Positions 3,624 through 11,896 of a stretch of DNA of 64,000 nt are shown here, piece after piece. Each line of letters begins with the position of its first letter. Within the stretch, counting starts at the first letter, position 1. Below the pieces are notes generated by a model. The model was not told the DNA's origin, searched no databases, and saw only the letters and a list, made by a program, of their open reading frames with translations. The position numbers and the translations under genes are program-made. This DNA is from Vreelandella massiliensis. Its GTDB lineage: Bacteria; Pseudomonadota; Gammaproteobacteria; Pseudomonadales; Halomonadaceae. Where the stretch lies: assembly GCF_900155385.1 (NCBI RefSeq), contig NZ_LT699745.1, forward strand, positions 773,720-837,719. The letters run 5' to 3'.

Positions 3624-3778
3624 CGCTCGTCGACATCCGCACGGCGCTGGCCGCCGTGGCGAAGGATAAACGCCAAGATATGTATCTCGCACTGGATGAG
3701 CACGAAGCCACAGCGATTAACAATGCCAAAACGCTTTATCAGCGCGTACAAGCGCTGCAAACCCGTGGAAGCGCATGA
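3624..3778 (+). pseudogene. 3' remnant of a coiled-coil gene (paralogue of the gene at 8299)
   Basis: The reading frame ending at 3778 contains KDKRQDMYLALDEHEATAIN followed by NAKTLYQRVQALQ. This is nearly the same as QDKRRDVYLSLDAHEATAVE...SAKALYQRLQAL at the end of the protein encoded at 8299-8655. Only the last about 40 codons are present; the sequence to its left (3480-3620) has no similarity I can see. It is read as a decayed partial copy, not an independent gene. Confidence 0.6.
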
Positions 3779-5418: not shown

Positions 5419-5751
5419 TCAGCTAACCAAAGTTGCCAGCTTCGCCAGAACGTCGTCCATCACTTCTTGAGGAACGCTTTCCAGGCGCCGCCCTTGCCGC
5501 GCTTCGATATCCAGGGTTCGTAGCTGATTGCACAGCACAACGCCGGTTGTGGTCGTGCCGATACCGTCCAATGAAACGCTGAACCCTCGTGATCGAGCGA
5601 AGCCGCCGCCAGTGCTGATAGGCGCGACCAGTGGCGTACCCATTGCGAGATTGAACGCGTCCGGCGACACGATCAGTACTGGGCGCACTCCTTGCTGTTC
5701 ATGGCCCCGAGTGGGGTTGAGCGAGACGAGATAGATATTACCACGCCGCAT
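5419..5751 (-). CDS. MazF/PemK-family endoribonuclease toxin
   Basis: A 110-residue type II toxin of the MazF/PemK/ChpB family, expected to be a sequence-specific mRNA interferase. The N-terminus MRRGNIYLVSLNPTRGHEQQ with GVRPVLIVSPDAFN matches the family beta-barrel (the G-H-E-Q and RPV-L-V-S blocks). PLVAPISTGG follows, then GVVLCNQLRTLD toward the C-terminus. Its ATG (5751) overlaps the antitoxin stop by one base (TAATG), the usual translational coupling. It is expected to be co-repressed from the palindrome upstream of the antitoxin. Full length; no defect seen. Confidence 0.92.
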   Translation of the reverse strand: MRRGNIYLVSLNPTRGHEQQGVRPVLIVSPDAFNLAMGTPLVAPISTGGGFARSRGFSVSLDGIGTTTTGVVLCNQLRTLDIEARQGRRLESVPQEVMDDVLAKLATLVS

Positions 5752-6005
5752 TAAAAAAGCTCACGCCCGATAGGGCCGGAATCCAGCCACTCGCGCTCGT
5801 CGGCGGGCATCTCCGCTGTGGTGTCGCACTGAGCCAGAAGCTCCTCAAGGGAATACGTCGGTTTGGCAGGTGCCATGATCAGGCGTCCGTGCTCGATTTT
5901 GACCTCGACTTGGGAGCCTGCGTCCAGGTGTAGCTGATCAAGGAACGCACGCGGCACCGACATCATGACGGAACCGCCGACACGGCGAAGGTTGGTTGTG
6001 CTCAT
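5751..6005 (-). CDS. MazE-like AbrB-fold antitoxin
   Basis: An 84-residue antitoxin. The N-terminal swapped-hairpin DNA-binding domain is visible in LRRVGGSVMMSVPRAFLDQL and GSQVEVKIEHGRLIM. An acidic C-terminal tail (SLEELLAQCDTTAEMPADEREW) would bind and block the toxin. The start at 6005 (MSTTNLRRVGG) is chosen over 6032, as it gives the usual short N-terminus before the AbrB fold. It is first in a two-gene operon with the toxin and probably autorepresses through the inverted repeat at 6054-6075. Confidence 0.9.
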   Translation of the reverse strand: MSTTNLRRVGGSVMMSVPRAFLDQLHLDAGSQVEVKIEHGRLIMAPAKPTYSLEELLAQCDTTAEMPADEREWLDSGPIGRELF

Positions 6006-6053
6006 ACAAGCCCCCTGCGCATGGCAGCGCATTGATGCTTTGTTAAAAAATGA

Positions 6054-6222: not shown

Positions 6223-6308
6223 TCTTCTCGCAGCGCTCGTTCACGCAAAAACGCCAAGCGGCGGGTTTCTTCATCGGCGCTGAGCTCGCGGATGCGGTTC
6301 ATCGCCAT
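6223..6308 (-). pseudogene. detached internal fragment of a second Rpn-family gene
   Basis: Reading leftward from 6308 the frame gives MAMNRIRELSADEETRRLAF followed by LRERALREEGLA and a stop. It is almost the same as KRAMSRIRELSADEETRRLAFVRERALRDE inside the full Rpn gene (about 6490-6570). Its ATG overlaps the TGA of that gene. The flanking DNA lacks the rest of the gene. It is best read as a leftover of a tandem Rpn copy. Confidence 0.65.
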
Positions 6309-7165
6309 CAATGCCTCACCTCATCGCGAAGCGCCTTTACGTCGGATTCTGTTAAACCAGAGGCAGCAGCGATTTGAGCATCGTCCAACAGGTGCATCGA
6401 AATCAGTCTTCTTGCCACCTCCAGGCGTCCTTTCTCGATGCCCAGCTTTTCGCCTTCGCGCCTCGCATCATTCAAAAACGACACTTCATCCCGCAATGCT
6501 CGTTCCCGCACAAAGGCCAAGCGGCGGGTTTCTTCATCGGCGCTGAGCTCGCGGATGCGGCTCATCGCACGCTTGACGGGTTCATGGGCGACATTGGCCA
6601 TGGTGAGTTCCTCCTGCCAGTGCTTGAAGAAAGTGATCCAGGCGCGCAACGGGCCTTCCGGCAAGCCCAGGCGATCCGCCTTGTTCAGTTCGATCAGGTT
6701 CATCTGCAAAACGTTCCCCAGCGAAATATGGGGTTGGCGTTCATCGCGCATCTCGAAGCGCCAAATGGCTTGCTCGCGCTCGGCGGTGGTTTCCCTGAAC
6801 AGGTCGAAGTCCAGCAGGTGCAGGCCCACCGAGGCCCGCAGCTCTTCGTAGTCCTCCCCAGCACTAAGCTGATTGCCCAGCGTGCGAGTCAGGTAGAACA
6901 GACCTCGCTTGTGCCAGGCGCCGTAGCGACGCACCTGCACCTCGACATTGTAGCAGTGGCCGTCACCGTCACGGGCCAGCACGTCAAGGATGATGTATTT
7001 GCCGGTGAGTTCGGTTGGCTCGATGTTGGGGTTAAGAATTTCAACGGAGGCAATATCAGGCAAATCCGGGCGCAGATCGTTGATCAGATCCACCAGCAGG
7101 TCTGGAGCTTCAGCGAACAGCCGCTTGAAGACGTAATCGTTGGTGGGATCAAGTAATGCGCTCAT
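6308..7165 (-). CDS. Rpn-family recombination-promoting nuclease / PD-(D/E)XK nuclease family transposase-like protein
   Basis: A 285-residue protein starting MSALLDPTNDYVFKRLFAEA, the hallmark N-terminus of the PDDEXK transposase-like family that includes E. coli RpnA-E. The nuclease core residues are visible as the aspartate in YIILDVLARDGDG and the E-x-Q of YNVEVQVRRYGAW. The C-terminal part is a charged helical region ending in a small tail (ARRLISMHLLDDAQIAAASGL). A strong AGGAGG lies 4 bp before the ATG at 7165, favouring it over 7198. Members promote RecA-independent recombination or act as DNases; its role here is inferred. Its tail is duplicated just downstream and another Rpn stump lies at 3263. 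Confidence 0.88.
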   Translation of the reverse strand: MSALLDPTNDYVFKRLFAEAPDLLVDLINDLRPDLPDIASVEILNPNIEPTELTGKYIILDVLARDGDGHCYNVEVQVRRYGAWHKRGLFYLTRTLGNQLSAGEDYEELRASVGLHLLDFDLFRETTAEREQAIWRFEMRDERQPHISLGNVLQMNLIELNKADRLGLPEGPLRAWITFFKHWQEELTMANVAHEPVKRAMSRIRELSADEETRRLAFVRERALRDEVSFLNDARREGEKLGIEKGRLEVARRLISMHLLDDAQIAAASGLTESDVKALRDEVRH

Positions 7166-7242
7166 GCAACCTCCTGCGTATTGTTTCCATTTTACCACGG
7201 CAGTAGCTGCAAGGCGCTCGCTATGCCATACCTAGAGAGAAA

Positions 7243-7594: not shown

Positions 7595-8203
7595 ATGGAA
7601 CCCACAACACTCCCGCTTTTAATCGCGATTTTGGCGGTTTGGGCAAGCCTTAACGGCGGCTTGGTGGTGATTTACCTGCTGGTGTCGGGTGAAACACTGG
7701 GCTTTAACCTGGGCTTGAGTAAGCGCAAGCCCCGCAAGCAAGTCGACGATGTGGCGTCAGCCCCCACGGATGACGCCCCTGTGCTGGTGGATGAAAGTGC
7801 CGGCGCCTGGGGGCTTTTTGTGATGTTTGATGACCCCACGATCGCCTCTAACGAGCGCTTGAGCATCGTGCTCTCGTCCGCCGGGGCGGTGTATGAGAGC
7901 AGCAGCAAATCCTTCACCGTGGCGGGGGATTCACCCCGTAACCCCATCTATATCGCTAACGCTTACCCGCCCGGCACCTTGCCTACCTTCAACCAGGATA
8001 ACGGCCATTTCCCCGTGAAGGGTGTCAGTGTGAAGATGCTAAAAAAGAGCAAAAGCGCCACGCCCAATAAGCTTCAACTGGTACGCTTGGTGAATTTGGC
8101 AAAAGAGCTTTCCCGCATCGGCGGTAAGGTAGTCGATGCGGAGAAGCACCCCGTGACGGCTAGCGGTTTTCAGGCGGTTATCGACGGCAAGGCGAAGGTG
8201 TAG
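7595..8203 (+). CDS. single-pass membrane protein with a ZipA C-terminal-like domain
   Basis: A 202-residue protein with one N-terminal transmembrane helix (residues about 7-30, PLLIAILAVWASLNGGLVVI). A basic patch SKRKPRKQ follows, then a Pro/Asp-rich linker to about residue 65 and a globular C-terminal domain. That domain (FVMFDDPTIASNERLSIVLS, FTVAG...NPIYIANAYPPGTLP, FPVKGVSVKMLKKS, LVRLVNLAKELSRIGGKVVD) follows the order of the ZipA FtsZ-binding fold. The match is remote and by eye, so the function is inference. Usual ZipA neighbours (ligA, smc) are absent, so this would be a paralogue or a protein reusing the fold. It lies between repeat clusters. Confidence 0.5.
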   Translation: MEPTTLPLLIAILAVWASLNGGLVVIYLLVSGETLGFNLGLSKRKPRKQVDDVASAPTDDAPVLVDESAGAWGLFVMFDDPTIASNERLSIVLSSAGAVYESSSKSFTVAGDSPRNPIYIANAYPPGTLPTFNQDNGHFPVKGVSVKMLKKSKSATPNKLQLVRLVNLAKELSRIGGKVVDAEKHPVTASGFQAVIDGKAKV

Positions 8204-8298: not shown

Positions 8299-8655
8299 GT
8301 GAAGCAAGCGTCCGCGAGCATTTCCGCTTATGAGGTGATCTATGACCTCATCCCTAAGCTGAACACCATGAAAAAAGAAGTCAATACCACACTAAAGGTG
8401 ACGGTGGAAACGAGCAAAACGGCGGCGCAGAAGGCGCGATATGAGTCGCTGCAAAAGGAGTTTGAGCTGGAGCTGATGATGATCCGCTTGAATTTGGAGC
8501 ATCTACTCAACCGCTATGAGAATGAGCTTGAGGCGGTGACGCAAGATAAGCGCCGCGACGTTTACCTGTCTCTGGACGCGCATGAGGCCACGGCGGTTGA
8601 AAGCGCTAAAGCGCTGTACCAACGCTTGCAAGCGTTAACCCAGGCGGAGCGATAA
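8299..8655 (+). CDS. small coiled-coil protein of unknown function
   Basis: A 118-residue, highly charged and probably all-helical protein. It starts at GTG 8299 (MKQASASISAYEVIYDLIPK) behind a GGGGGAG ribosome site. Long heptad-like stretches run from about residue 20 to 80 (LNTMKKEVNTTLKVTVETSK; YESLQKEFELELMMIRLNLE), followed by the conserved end block RRDVYLSLDAHEATAVESAK and ALYQRLQAL. No family recognised. A second, truncated copy of the end block lies at 3624-3778, so it belongs to a small local gene family tied to the repeat-rich region. Confidence 0.6.
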   Translation: MKQASASISAYEVIYDLIPKLNTMKKEVNTTLKVTVETSKTAAQKARYESLQKEFELELMMIRLNLEHLLNRYENELEAVTQDKRRDVYLSLDAHEATAVESAKALYQRLQALTQAER

Positions 8656-8710: not shown

Positions 8711-8737
8711 TCAAGTTCGCAATCAATAAGCCGAGAG
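8711..8737 (+). promoter_or_regulatory. sigma-28 (FliA)-like promoter for the first fliD
   Basis: TCAAGTTC - 11 bp - GCCGAGAG matches the FliA consensus TAAAGTTT-N11-GCCGATAA at 6/8 and 6/8 with exact spacing. It lies 118 bp upstream of the fliD start at 8855. Confidence 0.55.
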
Positions 8738-8854
8738 GCTAAGGTATTAGGCAATTCAATAAGGCGCATGAGCGTCGAACACATATCAGTGTGGCGCGCC
8801 AGTAAGTAACACGCGTGCGTGTAAGTACGCACTGTGAAAGAGGATGGTTTTGGT

Positions 8855-10237
8855 ATGTCGATTTCATCGCTTGGCATTGGCTCTGGGCTTGACCTTAACG
8901 GCCTTCTGGATCAGCTGCGCAGCGCGGAGCGTGAGAAACTAGCGCCTATCGAGCAGCAAATTGAGTCTGAGCAGACCAAAATTTCCGCGTATGGCCAGCT
9001 GGAGAGCGCCCTCTCGGAGTTCCAGAGTAGTGCCAGTGCGCTGGGTGACAGCTCGTTGTATGAAAGCCTCTCCGCGAGCACCAGCGGCGAGGCGGTCAGC
9101 GCGGCCGCTGATGAAACCGCGATGCCAGGGCGCTACGACATTGATGTGACGTCGCTTGCTACGCGTGGGACGCTGGCCTCAACCGGCGTTGCTGATCCGG
9201 AAGCAGCAATTTCAGGTGGTACTGATCAGCAGATGGAGTTCACTTTTGGTGATGATACAAACTCCAGCAAGAGTGTTGCCATCCCAGCAAATAGCTCTTT
9301 AGAGGAGATCCGCGATGCCATCAATGCCGACGAAAACGCGGGCGTCAACGCGACAATTATTAATGACGGCAGTGGCTCCAATGAGTTTCGTCTGGCTCTG
9401 ACGTCACGTGAAACCGGTGCGGATGCTTCGATTTCTAGTTTTGAATTTAGTGAAACTGAGCCCTTTACGCCTGATGGGGCAAATAATACCAACACTCATC
9501 AAGCAGGCACCGACGCGAGCCTGGACGTGAATGGCATCACCATTACCAGCGCCAATAACCAGGTGGAAGGTGCGGTTCAGGGCGTGACCTTGAACCTGCA
9601 GAGCGAAGGCACCGGCACGGTGTCCGTCGAGCAAGACACCCTCGCCGTGCGCGAAGCGGTGACCGGCTTTGTGGACTCCTACAATTCGCTAAAAACCACC
9701 ATCGGCGATCTAACGTCCTTTAACCAGGAGACTGGCCAAGCCGGCGAGCTAAACGGCGACAACACGGTGCGCCGGGTGGAGTCGACCTTGCGCAGCGCGT
9801 TGAGCGGGGGCGTTGCGTCGGGCGGTGATGGCTTCTCGATGCTGAGCGATATCGGCATTTCACTGGAGCTCGATGGCACGCTTTCCGTGGACGAAGGGCG
9901 TTTGGATGACGTGATCGCTAACGATCAGCAGGCGCTATCGGATTTCTTTGCCGGCGGTGAGAGCTCCACCGGCTTGGCTGAGCAAATTGATACCAGCGTC
10001 GATCAAATGCTGAGCCGTTATGGCACCGTGCAAGGCGCCATCAATGGCTCGGAAAATCGGGTGGAGTCGCTAGGTGAGCGCTACACGCGCATGGAGCAGT
10101 CCGTCGAACTCACGATCAGCCGCTACCGCGAGCAGTTTAGCCAGCTTGACGGCATGATTGCCGAGATGAACCAAACCAGCAACTACCTTAGCAACCAGTT
10201 CTCGGCGCTAGAGGCGCAGATGAACGCCGGTAGTTAA
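8855..10237 (+). CDS. fliD: flagellar hook-associated protein 2 / filament cap FliD (copy 1)
   Basis: FliD forms the oligomeric cap at the filament tip and helps flagellin fold and insert. The 460-residue product begins MSISSLGIGSGLDLNGLLDQ, the conserved FliD N-terminus. It then has coiled-coil sequence, the SLEEIRDAINADENAGV block, VNGITITS and VEGAVQGVTLNL motifs. The C-terminal coiled coil ends NRVESLGERYTRMEQSVELT and FSALEAQMNAGS. The ATG at 8855 is used; the GTG at 8834 would add seven unconserved residues. A second fliD follows in tandem, and no flagellin or fliS is nearby. A sigma-28-like site precedes it and a terminator follows. Confidence 0.93.
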   Translation: MSISSLGIGSGLDLNGLLDQLRSAEREKLAPIEQQIESEQTKISAYGQLESALSEFQSSASALGDSSLYESLSASTSGEAVSAAADETAMPGRYDIDVTSLATRGTLASTGVADPEAAISGGTDQQMEFTFGDDTNSSKSVAIPANSSLEEIRDAINADENAGVNATIINDGSGSNEFRLALTSRETGADASISSFEFSETEPFTPDGANNTNTHQAGTDASLDVNGITITSANNQVEGAVQGVTLNLQSEGTGTVSVEQDTLAVREAVTGFVDSYNSLKTTIGDLTSFNQETGQAGELNGDNTVRRVESTLRSALSGGVASGGDGFSMLSDIGISLELDGTLSVDEGRLDDVIANDQQALSDFFAGGESSTGLAEQIDTSVDQMLSRYGTVQGAINGSENRVESLGERYTRMEQSVELTISRYREQFSQLDGMIAEMNQTSNYLSNQFSALEAQMNAGS

Positions 10238-10271
10238 CCCGCTGATGGTTTAATCCCGCGCTGATAGTAAC

Positions 10272-10297
10272 AAAAGCCCGCTTAACGCGGGCTTTTT
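10272..10297 (+). terminator. Rho-independent terminator after fliD copy 1
   Basis: AAAGCCCGC-ttaac-GCGGGCTTTTT: GC-rich stem with a T run, 35 bp after the fliD stop. Confidence 0.85.
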
Positions 10298-10346
10298 GCT
10301 GGCTAGCCGTTCGCCCTGACACAACGAGCTGATACACTTAAAGAAC

Positions 10347-10374
10347 AAAAAGGCGCTAAAGGAAGCGCCTTTTT
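10347..10374 (+). terminator. second hairpin terminator between the two fliD genes
   Basis: AAAAAGGCGCT-aaagga-AGCGCCTTTTT is a near-symmetric stem with A and T runs, so it could act in both directions. Its loop and right arm overlap the sigma-28-like site listed next. Confidence 0.75.
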
Positions 10375-10383
10375 AGTCGATAA
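10357..10383 (+). promoter_or_regulatory. sigma-28 (FliA)-like promoter for the second fliD
   Basis: TAAAGGAA - 11 bp - GTCGATAA: the -10 matches GCCGATAA at 7/8, the -35 matches TAAAGTTT at 5/8, and the spacing is exact. It overlaps the terminator hairpin and lies 103 bp before the second fliD. A perfect 14-bp palindrome (10408-10421, ACAGTGCGCACTGT) lies just downstream. Confidence 0.45.
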
Positions 10384-10486
10384 TAAAATCAACGACAATT
10401 CCAACCGACAGTGCGCACTGTCCGCTTTTATGCAGGCGAAGCGCAATACGTGTTTGGTTTAGCCTTATTTACTGAGGATTTCCAGT

Positions 10487-11896
10487 ATGGCGACAATAAC
10501 CTCTCTCGGTATTGGCTCCGGCCTCGATCTTAACGGCCTGCTCGACCAGCTCAAGGATGCCGAGCGCGGCAAGCTTGCGCCCATCACGCGTCAGCAAGAG
10601 CAGCAGGAAGCCAAAATTTCAGCGTACGGCAAGATTCAGTCCTCCCTAGAGGGGCTGAAAGAGGCAGTCGACGGTCTCAAAGACCCCAAGCTTTTCCAGA
10701 GCCTCTCCGCTAGCGTGCGCGGCGACGAGATCACGGCTACCACGGATGCCAAGGCGCTGCCGGGCAGCTACCGCGTAGAGGTGAGCCAGCTTGCCACTAG
10801 CGGCACTCTCGCATCCAGTCAGATTGGCAATAGCAGCGAACCGCTAACGCTGGGTGGCGCGACGCAGTTAGAGCTTACCTTTAACGATAAAGAAAGTGTC
10901 ACCATTGAGATTGCTGAAGATAGCAGCCTAGAAGATATCCGTGATGCTATTAATGCCAAGAAAGACGCTGGAGTAAGTGCCAGCGTGATTTTTGACGGTA
11001 CCGGTTACCGCTTAGCGCTGAATTCTAGCGATACTGGCGATAAAGCTTCCATCCAAAGCTTTGATTTCTACGCCGGCGACGACCGTACAACCCCTATTAC
11101 CGTCAAGGATTCAGATGAGAAAGAGTTGACGAACGGCACGCCTATCAGCGGCCAAGACGCGGCGTTGAAAGTCAACGGTATCAATATTACCAGCGACACC
11201 AACCAGGTCGAAGGCGCGATCCAGGGCGTCACCTTGAACCTGGGTGATCTCGATATTGGCAAAGATGAAACGGCAAGCAGCACCGTCACGGTCGAGCGCA
11301 ATACGCTCAAAATTCGCGAAGCCGTGGGCGATTTTGTTGACGCCTTTAACGATATGAAGGACACCATCGGCTCGCTGACGAAATACTCCGGCGACCGCGA
11401 AACCGCCGGTGAGCTGGTGGGCGATAGCACGGTACGCACCATCGAAGGCCGCTTGCGTGGCGCGCTGACAGGCGGTGTGGTAGGCGGTGAGTTTTCCACG
11501 CTGAACCAGCTGGGGATTACGCTGCAGCGCGATGGCACCTTGGAAATCGACGAAGACGCGATTAGCGATCTGGCCAAAAACAGCCCCGATGCCTTGAGCG
11601 ATTTTTTTGCCGGCGTTGAGGGGGAAAACGGCTTGGCCGATACCCTGAGCAAAACCGTGGCGCAGCTGACAGGGGATAAAGGTACTCTCGGGATTGCGAT
11701 TAGCGGCGCGGAGAATCGCGTCGAGAGCTTGGGCGTGCGCTACGAGCGCATGGAGCAGAGCATCGAGCGCACGATTTCGCGCTATCGGGTACAGTTTGGT
11801 CAGCTCGACTCCATGATCGCGCAGATGAACCAAACCAGTACGTACCTGAACCAGCAGTTCGATGCCCTTGATGCGGCACTAGGCCGTAAGAAGTAA
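10487..11896 (+). CDS. fliD: flagellar hook-associated protein 2 / filament cap FliD (copy 2)
   Basis: A second full-length FliD (469 residues) starting MATITSLGIGSGLDLNGLLD. It shares with copy 1 the N-terminal block, the RDAINAKKDAGV and VNGINITSDTNQVEGAIQGV motifs, and the C-terminal block (GAENRVESLGVRYERMEQSI, QFGQLDSMIAQMNQTSTYL). The central region that forms the exposed cap domains is clearly diverged. GAGGA precedes the ATG. Expected to be exported through the flagellar type III apparatus and assembled at the filament tip. The tandem pair looks like an old duplication outside any flagellar operon. Whether the two form one mixed cap or alternate is not known. Confidence 0.92.
   Translation: MATITSLGIGSGLDLNGLLDQLKDAERGKLAPITRQQEQQEAKISAYGKIQSSLEGLKEAVDGLKDPKLFQSLSASVRGDEITATTDAKALPGSYRVEVSQLATSGTLASSQIGNSSEPLTLGGATQLELTFNDKESVTIEIAEDSSLEDIRDAINAKKDAGVSASVIFDGTGYRLALNSSDTGDKASIQSFDFYAGDDRTTPITVKDSDEKELTNGTPISGQDAALKVNGINITSDTNQVEGAIQGVTLNLGDLDIGKDETASSTVTVERNTLKIREAVGDFVDAFNDMKDTIGSLTKYSGDRETAGELVGDSTVRTIEGRLRGALTGGVVGGEFSTLNQLGITLQRDGTLEIDEDAISDLAKNSPDALSDFFAGVEGENGLADTLSKTVAQLTGDKGTLGIAISGAENRVESLGVRYERMEQSIERTISRYRVQFGQLDSMIAQMNQTSTYLNQQFDALDAALGRKK

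What the first reader, a model, noticed from the sequence alone, without database searches (positions are those of the whole stretch)
8711..11896. Orphan tandem fliD pair, each behind a FliA-like promoter
Two full-length caps with conserved ends and diverged central domains sit outside any flagellar cluster. Both upstream regions have FliA-like sites with exact N11 spacing (8711, 10357). Two caps with different exposed domains could be co-assembled or alternate to change filament-tip adhesion or phage/host recognition.
Basis: partly seen in the sequence, partly recalled or inferred. Interest (0 to 1): 0.6.

Follow-up and report, generated by a model that had tools for sequence, protein, structure and literature searches.

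The report
Conserved twin flagellar cap genes
A salt-loving bacterium carries two different genes for the cap at the tip of its flagellum instead of the usual one, and many of its relatives keep the same pair, which raises the testable question of whether one flagellum is built with a mixed or an alternative tip.

Summary
The pair is real. ORFs 8855-10237 (FliD-A) and 10487-11896 (FliD-B) are full-length flagellar caps and the only fliD genes found in the genome, which has one FlhDC-type flagellar system. It is not a local oddity: 34 of 47 fliD-bearing same-genus genomes have two copies, and all 35 same-genus loci inspected are tandem, A then B, with fliC next in 28. Here and in close relatives fliC lies elsewhere. 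A and B stem from an old duplication; both are under strong purifying selection. The two FliA-like sites are near chance alone but such sites recur upstream of the orthologues, stronger before B. B has a leader block found once in each of 21 of 61 genus genomes, each time before fliD-B, and is the copy kept in 11 of 12 single-copy genomes placed. Best reading: B is the principal and A an accessory cap of the same filament. Mixed versus alternative caps is untested. fliA is split between contigs in this assembly, so FliA dependence is unproven in this strain. New variant of a known kind.

The parts
7595..8203 (+). orf202, unknown protein; relatives near fliD or fliC in some other genomes
   Evidence: No Pfam or NCBIfam match; 76% identical copy upstream of the pair in G185, more distant matches in five other fetched loci and in three more; whether it also occurs away from fliD loci was not searched
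8299..8655 (+). orf118, unknown small protein, first gene upstream of fliD-A; family partly linked to fliD/fliC
   Evidence: No Pfam match at gathering level; no similarity to FliT; genome search: all own matches lie near the pair or near fliC, but in G087 and G171 the only copy lies elsewhere
8711..8737 (+). FliA-like site upstream of fliD-A, TCAAGTTC-N11-GCCGAGAG, 12/16
   Evidence: sites of 12/16 or more upstream of 20 of 27 A copies
8855..10237 (+). fliD-A, flagellar filament cap protein, 460 aa
   Evidence: Pfam FliD_N, Flagellin_IN, FliD_C; cap fold; dN/dS 0.06 against G185
10272..10296 (+). terminator-like hairpin after fliD-A
   Evidence: -16.4 kcal/mol, z -5.5, followed by T run; not listed by the pattern scan
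10346..10375 (.). second hairpin; its loop holds the -35 half of the fliD-B FliA-like site
   Evidence: listed on the - strand; -16.1 kcal/mol
10357..10383 (+). FliA-like site upstream of fliD-B, TAAAGGAA-N11-GTCGATAA, 12/16
   Evidence: sites of 12/16 or more upstream of 27 of 27 B copies
10456..10478 (+). conserved leader block GGTTTAGCC-N-ACTGAGGA just before fliD-B, including the likely ribosome-binding site
   Evidence: once in each of 21 of 61 genus genomes, 0 for the reversed pattern; all 21 directly upstream of fliD-B; aligned
10487..11896 (+). fliD-B, flagellar filament cap protein, 469 aa
   Evidence: Pfam FliD_N, Flagellin_IN, FliD_C; cap fold; dN/dS 0.11 against G185

Best explanation
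Both genes encode working FliD filament caps for the single FlhDC/FliA-type flagellum of this Halomonas/Vreelandella-group bacterium. They are old tandem paralogues. B, which adjoins fliC in most relatives inspected, is the principal cap; A is an accessory cap, probably transcribed separately behind a weaker FliA-type promoter. Both would be made late, exported by the same flagellar secretion system and seated on the same filament through their shared terminal helices, so that tips carry B with some A, either as mixed rings or as a minority of A caps. Shown by computation: cap identity, sole copies, old conserved tandem duplication, purifying selection on both, promoter and leader asymmetry, asymmetric loss. 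Inferred: the principal/accessory roles, use on the same filament, separate transcription, and the make-up of the tip.
For: Cap domains and fold. Only two fliD, one FliS, one filament flagellin plus FlgL, one flagellar gene set. Tandem in 35 of 35 same-genus loci inspected, fliC downstream in 28. dN/dS 0.05-0.11 for both where it could be estimated. FliA-type sites of 12/16 or more before 20 of 27 A and 27 of 27 B copies against 13 of 420 random stretches; B better in 21 of 27 pairs, worse in 3, equal in 3. B-specific leader block. 11 of 12 placed single-copy genomes keep a B-type copy. Terminal parts most conserved between A and B; helices alpha1, alpha5 and alpha6 set filament compatibility in Pseudomonas FliD (PMC8533109, section 2.3 read).
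Against: No expression or phenotype data. In this very genome the two sites score the same, 12/16, and 3 of 27 pairs have the stronger site at A. Residues 46-70, part of the alpha1 helix in the models, are the least alike (28%), against a simple 'same filament contact' reading. G135 keeps only an A-type copy, so A can be the sole cap. Both copies score below the NCBIfam FliD equivalog cut-off (333 and 361.5 against 387 bits). fliA is split in this assembly. The promoter test and loss count ignore relatedness.
Confidence: 0.6

Rival explanations
1. Mixed cap (a special case of the best reading): A and B normally co-assemble into one ring, so each filament has a two-component cap.
For: Both copies kept together through the genus in most genomes; equal average divergence and correlated distances in 26 genomes, r=0.82; partners from the same genome slightly more alike than strangers in residues 46-70, 259-330 and 391-430 but not in 71-213, 331-390 or 1-45.
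Against: 13 of 47 same-genus genomes do with one copy. The excess is small (0.01-0.02) and the test ignores relatedness. Correlated distances follow from shared descent alone.
Confidence: 0.25
2. Alternative caps: cells or filaments switch between A and B tips, changing surface contact, phage or host recognition.
For: Separate upstream sites, a hairpin between the genes, and different leaders; A heads shorter and more acidic on average than B heads (181 versus 195 residues, net charge -22 versus -15).
Against: No switch element was seen in the 249-base gap; both have the same promoter type, which points to joint expression; head domains are not more diverged than D1. No adhesion or phage evidence was sought or found.
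Confidence: 0.15
3. One cap per flagellin: A serves one flagellin type and B another.
For: Many relatives have more than one flagellin, and in most the pair adjoins fliC.
Against: This genome has two caps but one filament flagellin besides FlgL. Flagellin_N match counts do not differ between 34 two-cap genomes (2-8, mean 3.6) and 13 one-cap genomes (3-7, mean 3.8; Mann-Whitney p 0.49).
Confidence: 0.05
4. Decaying relic: in this strain the pair is a leftover of a lost or failing flagellum.
For: fliC lies about 436 kb away on the contig; fliA is divided between the end of contig C4 and an interior place on C2 next to a truncated transporter-like gene.
Against: Both ORFs are intact with low dN/dS; G185 (H. 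llamarensis) and G126 (H. salicampi) also lack adjacent fliC, yet keep intact pairs and complete fliA. The two fliA parts share a 22-base end, which an assembly join would explain equally well.
Confidence: 0.08

Closest known systems
FliD (HAP2) filament cap of Escherichia coli and Salmonella
   Same: Same domains, length, cap fold and FlhDC/FliA-type genetic setting; 34-36% identical to E. coli FliD
   Different: E. coli K-12 has one fliD beside fliS-fliT; here two diverged fliD lie in tandem, apart from fliS-fliT and, in this genome, from fliC
Type A / type B FliD of Pseudomonas aeruginosa
   Same: Two diverged cap types in one bacterial group (known to me here through passages of PMC3542200, which cites Arora et al. 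2000)
   Different: There the two types are found in different strains; here both are in one genome
Two fliD genes in bacteria with two separate flagellar systems (recalled, for example polar plus lateral flagella in Vibrio and Aeromonas)
   Same: More than one fliD in a genome
   Different: Here only one FliS, one filament flagellin and one flagellar gene set were found

Membership tests
FliD filament cap family | FliD_N and FliD_C domains over the Pfam cut-off | tested here: met
   FliD-A 85.2 and 176.6 bits, FliD-B 85.3 and 171.6 bits; cut-offs 24.8 and 25.4
FliD filament cap family | NCBIfam FliD equivalog cut-off (NF005955, 387 bits) | tested here: not met
   333 and 361.5 bits over nearly the whole profile; the other FliD equivalog cut-offs were not reached either. 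These are per-subgroup cut-offs
FliD filament cap family | Cap fold: terminal helices, helical leg, beta-rich head | tested here: met
   predicted models; best solved matches are FliD chains, E 1e-34 or so
FliD filament cap family | Forms a ring at the filament tip and is needed for filament growth | not testable with these tools
   needs deletions and tip imaging
FliA (sigma-28) controlled late flagellar genes | TAAAGTTT-N11-GCCGATAA-like site upstream (consensus recalled) | tested here: met
   12/16 at both sites, near chance alone but recurrent upstream of orthologues
FliA (sigma-28) controlled late flagellar genes | A complete fliA in the same genome | tested here: inconclusive
   complete in 6 of 6 relatives; in this assembly profile positions 3-86 on contig C4 and 80-223 on C2
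FliA (sigma-28) controlled late flagellar genes | fliA-dependent transcript | not testable with these tools
   needs reporter fusions or 5'-end mapping

The most novel reading that the evidence does not exclude
The Halomonas-group flagellum carries a two-component cap: FliD-A and FliD-B assemble into one tip ring on a single filament, with B's level set separately through its own promoter and a genus-specific leader element, so that cap composition is a regulated property of the tip.
Probability: 0.25. Interest if true: 0.65.

Novelty: new variant of a known kind. Interest (0 to 1): 0.45.

Why it matters
The cap is described as a ring of one protein, FliD, in the papers whose passages I saw (PMC12221982, PMC5072837, PMC8533109). 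A bacterial group that keeps two diverged caps for one flagellar system offers a natural way to ask whether ring subunits must be identical, how cap and flagellin evolve together, and whether tip composition is regulated. No text listed by the searches describes such a pair as far as titles, listings and the passages opened show; most hits were not opened. One genome paper names a 'fliD1' among genes unique to H. salifodinae A2 (PMC12226641, passages seen).

Tried and rejected
Considered and dropped. (1) Extra copies beside a normal fliD in the main locus: no third FliD_N match in the genome. (2) One cap per flagellin: counts do not follow. (3) orf118 as a FliT-like cap chaperone: no alignment to E. 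coli FliT, profile comparison probability 0.1, only chance-level Pfam matches. I first took orf118 as strictly flagellar-linked; one search shows the link is partial. (4) A structured RNA in the fliD-B leader: RNAalifold gave 3 unvarying pairs and no covariation. (5) The head as the special site of A/B divergence: not borne out. (6) Mobile-element origin: blastn against plasmids found 2 records, a 1.83-Mb Halomonas replicon with the same fliD-fliD-fliC order and a short match in Cupriavidus. (7) The strict pattern TAAAGNNN-N10..12-GCCGATAA over the whole own genome gave one site, upstream of an ORF I could not link to flagella; neither fliD site fits that strict pattern. (8) One search had the A and B copies of G032 the wrong way round; the test was redone with that row corrected. 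(9) In one search the own fliC had no FliA-like site better than 11/16.
Full report
What is there. The window holds two adjacent ORFs on the + strand, 8855-10237 (460 aa, here fliD-A) and 10487-11896 (469 aa, fliD-B), 249 bases apart. Both carry FliD_N, the Flagellin_IN motif and FliD_C over the Pfam cut-offs. Against the NCBIfam FliD equivalog they score 333 and 361.5 bits, below its cut-off of 387. They are 52% identical over nearly their whole length. AlphaFold models (mean pLDDT 85.5 and 87.6, pTM 0.64 and 0.65) show the cap architecture, and the best solved matches are FliD chains of the Salmonella cap-filament complex. An upstream GTG at 8834 could add seven residues to FliD-A, but the conserved start is the ATG at 8855.

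The genome. The window lies in a 3.44-Mb, 23-contig genome. Its closest named relatives by FliD-A are Halomonas llamarensis, H. salicampi and Vreelandella species. FliD_N matches only these two places. Flagellin_N matches two: fliC, about 436 kb from the pair on the same contig, and a place on C9 that coincides with flgL. FliS matches once. Contig C9 carries the flg and fli clusters, fliS-fliT, flhDC, motAB, che genes, flhB and flhA. So one E. coli-type flagellar system was found and the pair is its whole cap complement. fliA is the weak point. Its first part reads off the end of the 3.5-kb contig C4; its second part lies inside C2 next to a truncated transporter-like gene (named by eye), and the two share 22 bases. 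All 6 relatives searched have a complete fliA, and in the two whose loci were read it lies between flhF and motC. An assembly error and true breakage both remain possible.

How widespread. In one search (201 genomes of the family, drawn evenly), 51 same-genus genomes are listed; 47 have FliD, 34 with two copies and 13 with one. Eight further matchless genomes of unstated genus are not listed there. In the rest of the family I count 35 of 126 FliD-bearing genomes with two. In the order outside the family, 7 of 167 FliD-bearing genomes have two. I inspected 35 same-genus loci: this window, 20 and 14. They cover 28 of the 34 two-copy genomes and 7 genomes first met; those 7 were picked because they hold the leader block, so they are not a random sample. 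All 35 are tandem in the order A-B on one strand, and in 28 fliC follows on the same strand within the stretch read. The seven without it are this genome, G185, G126, G122 and G456, and G129 and G438, where the contig ends soon after the pair. In G448 the B copy is broken into three pieces. Halomonas sp. PA16-9 also shows fliD-fliD-fliC. In two genomes of genus g20 one fliD lies beside fliC and another beside fliS and flhDC; in one g2 genome one copy lies beside fliS and flhDC and the other at a contig end.

Age and constraint. In FastTree trees of FliD proteins the B copies form one group holding members of the genus and of genera g20 and g9 (support 0.67, 0.99). The A copies form one weakly supported group with the same spread (0.41) and fall into several groups with unresolved links (0.22-0.67). 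An origin of the pair before the genus is the simplest reading; transfer between genera was not tested. Across 26 genomes the mean A and B distances are alike (0.28 each) and correlate (r=0.82). Orthologue comparisons give dN/dS of 0.05-0.11 for both; two of the 13 comparisons were saturated. Own A and B are most alike at residues 1-45 (71%) and 391-460 (66%) and least at 46-70 (28%); head and D1 are both 49%. Chimera work in Pseudomonas places filament compatibility in helices alpha1, alpha5 and alpha6 (PMC8533109, section 2.3 read). Partners from the same genome are slightly more alike than strangers at 46-70, 259-330, 391-430 and 431-460 (0, 3, 2 and 17 of 1000 permutations), but not at 1-45, 71-120, 121-213 or 331-390, with 214-258 borderline at 52. 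That test ignores relatedness and is only suggestive.

Promoters and leader. Both FliA-like sites exist with N11 spacing and score 12/16 against the recalled consensus. Alone they are near chance: five sites of 12 or more in the window against about 2.8 in Markov shuffles. Among 27 pairs (22 of the genus and PA16-9, 5 of genera g9 and g20), 27 of 27 B copies and 20 of 27 A copies have an N11 site of 12/16 or more in the 250 bases upstream, against 13 of 420 random 250-base stretches of the same loci. B is better in 21 pairs, worse in 3 (G047, G122, G185) and equal in 3, this genome among them (means 14.1 and 12.4; Wilcoxon p 1.7e-4, inflated by relatedness). The own fliC has at best an 11/16 site. 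A terminator-like hairpin follows fliD-A (10272-10296, -16.4 kcal/mol), although the pattern scan did not list it. A second hairpin (10346-10375) holds the -35 half of the B site in its loop. So A and B are probably separate transcripts. Just before fliD-B lies GGTTTAGCC-N-ACTGAGGA. The pattern occurs exactly once in each of 21 of 61 genus genomes and its reversed control in none. All 21 lie directly upstream of fliD-B, and the core TTTAGCC was not seen within 60 bases of any fliD-A start. The other 40 genomes lack the exact pattern; several carry near variants. No conserved secondary structure was found.

Which copy matters more. Of the 13 single-copy same-genus genomes, 12 were placed in the tree (G183 was not fetched): 11 keep a B-type copy and one, G135, an A-type copy. 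The losses of A cluster on the tree, so independent events are fewer, perhaps five by eye. Together with promoter strength, the leader block and adjacency to fliC this points to B as principal cap and A as accessory. Cap number does not track flagellin number: Flagellin_N matches, FlgL included, are 2-8 in 34 two-cap genomes and 3-7 in 13 one-cap genomes (Mann-Whitney p 0.49).

Neighbours. orf118 (8299-8655) and orf202 (7595-8203) lie upstream and match no known family. In a search of six genomes the orf118 family lies near fliD or fliC at every own place and at both G185 places, at one of two places in G187 and in G093, and at none in G087 and G171. The link is therefore partial. orf202 relatives were seen in some fliD loci and not sought elsewhere.

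Verdict. Whether A and B form mixed rings, alternative caps or a redundant dose cannot be settled from sequence. No text listed by the searches describes such a pair, as far as the listings and opened passages show. Passages were opened for PMC12226641, PMC13297067, PMC12221982, PMC5072837, PMC8533109 and PMC3542200, and section 2.3 of PMC8533109 was read; the other papers were seen as search listings only.

Noticed in passing
window 10456-10478: Leader block GGTTTAGCC-N-ACTGAGGA directly before fliD-B, once in each of 21 of 61 genus genomes and each time at fliD-B. No conserved structure; it could be a site for an RNA-binding protein or a small RNA.
   Followed up: partly
window 8299-8655; L011 12866-13144 and 17012-17419; window about 3641-3760: orf118: a small helical-looking protein family without Pfam match; the own copies and a fragment all lie near the fliD pair or near fliC, but in some relatives the copy lies elsewhere.
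   Followed up: partly
L013 3-299 (contig C4 end) and L124 about 6749-7161 (contig C2): fliA is split: the first part runs off C4, the second lies inside C2 beside a truncated transporter-like gene, with 22 shared bases. Assembly join or real break.
   Followed up: partly
window 6308-7198 and L011 13708-14667: A PDDEXK_2 (Rpn-type) transposase-nuclease ORF near the fliD pair, and a similar-looking ORF near fliC (by eye only); they may bear on how fliC and fliD came apart.
   Followed up: no
window 5419-6032, minus strand: PemK/MazF-type toxin gene with an overlapping small upstream ORF that may be its antitoxin (by position).
   Followed up: no
L014 7649-8798 (contig C1): The only strict match to the FliA pattern in the genome lies just upstream of a 366-aa ORF not linked to flagella so far.
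   Followed up: partly
L069 9058-14214 and L115 9522-14766: Arrays of about five tandem fliC-like genes directly after the fliD pair in genomes G165 and G139.
   Followed up: no
L097 6001-7677: A second, FliD-A-like reading frame with an extra stretch on another contig of Vreelandella azerica, besides its tandem pair.
   Followed up: no
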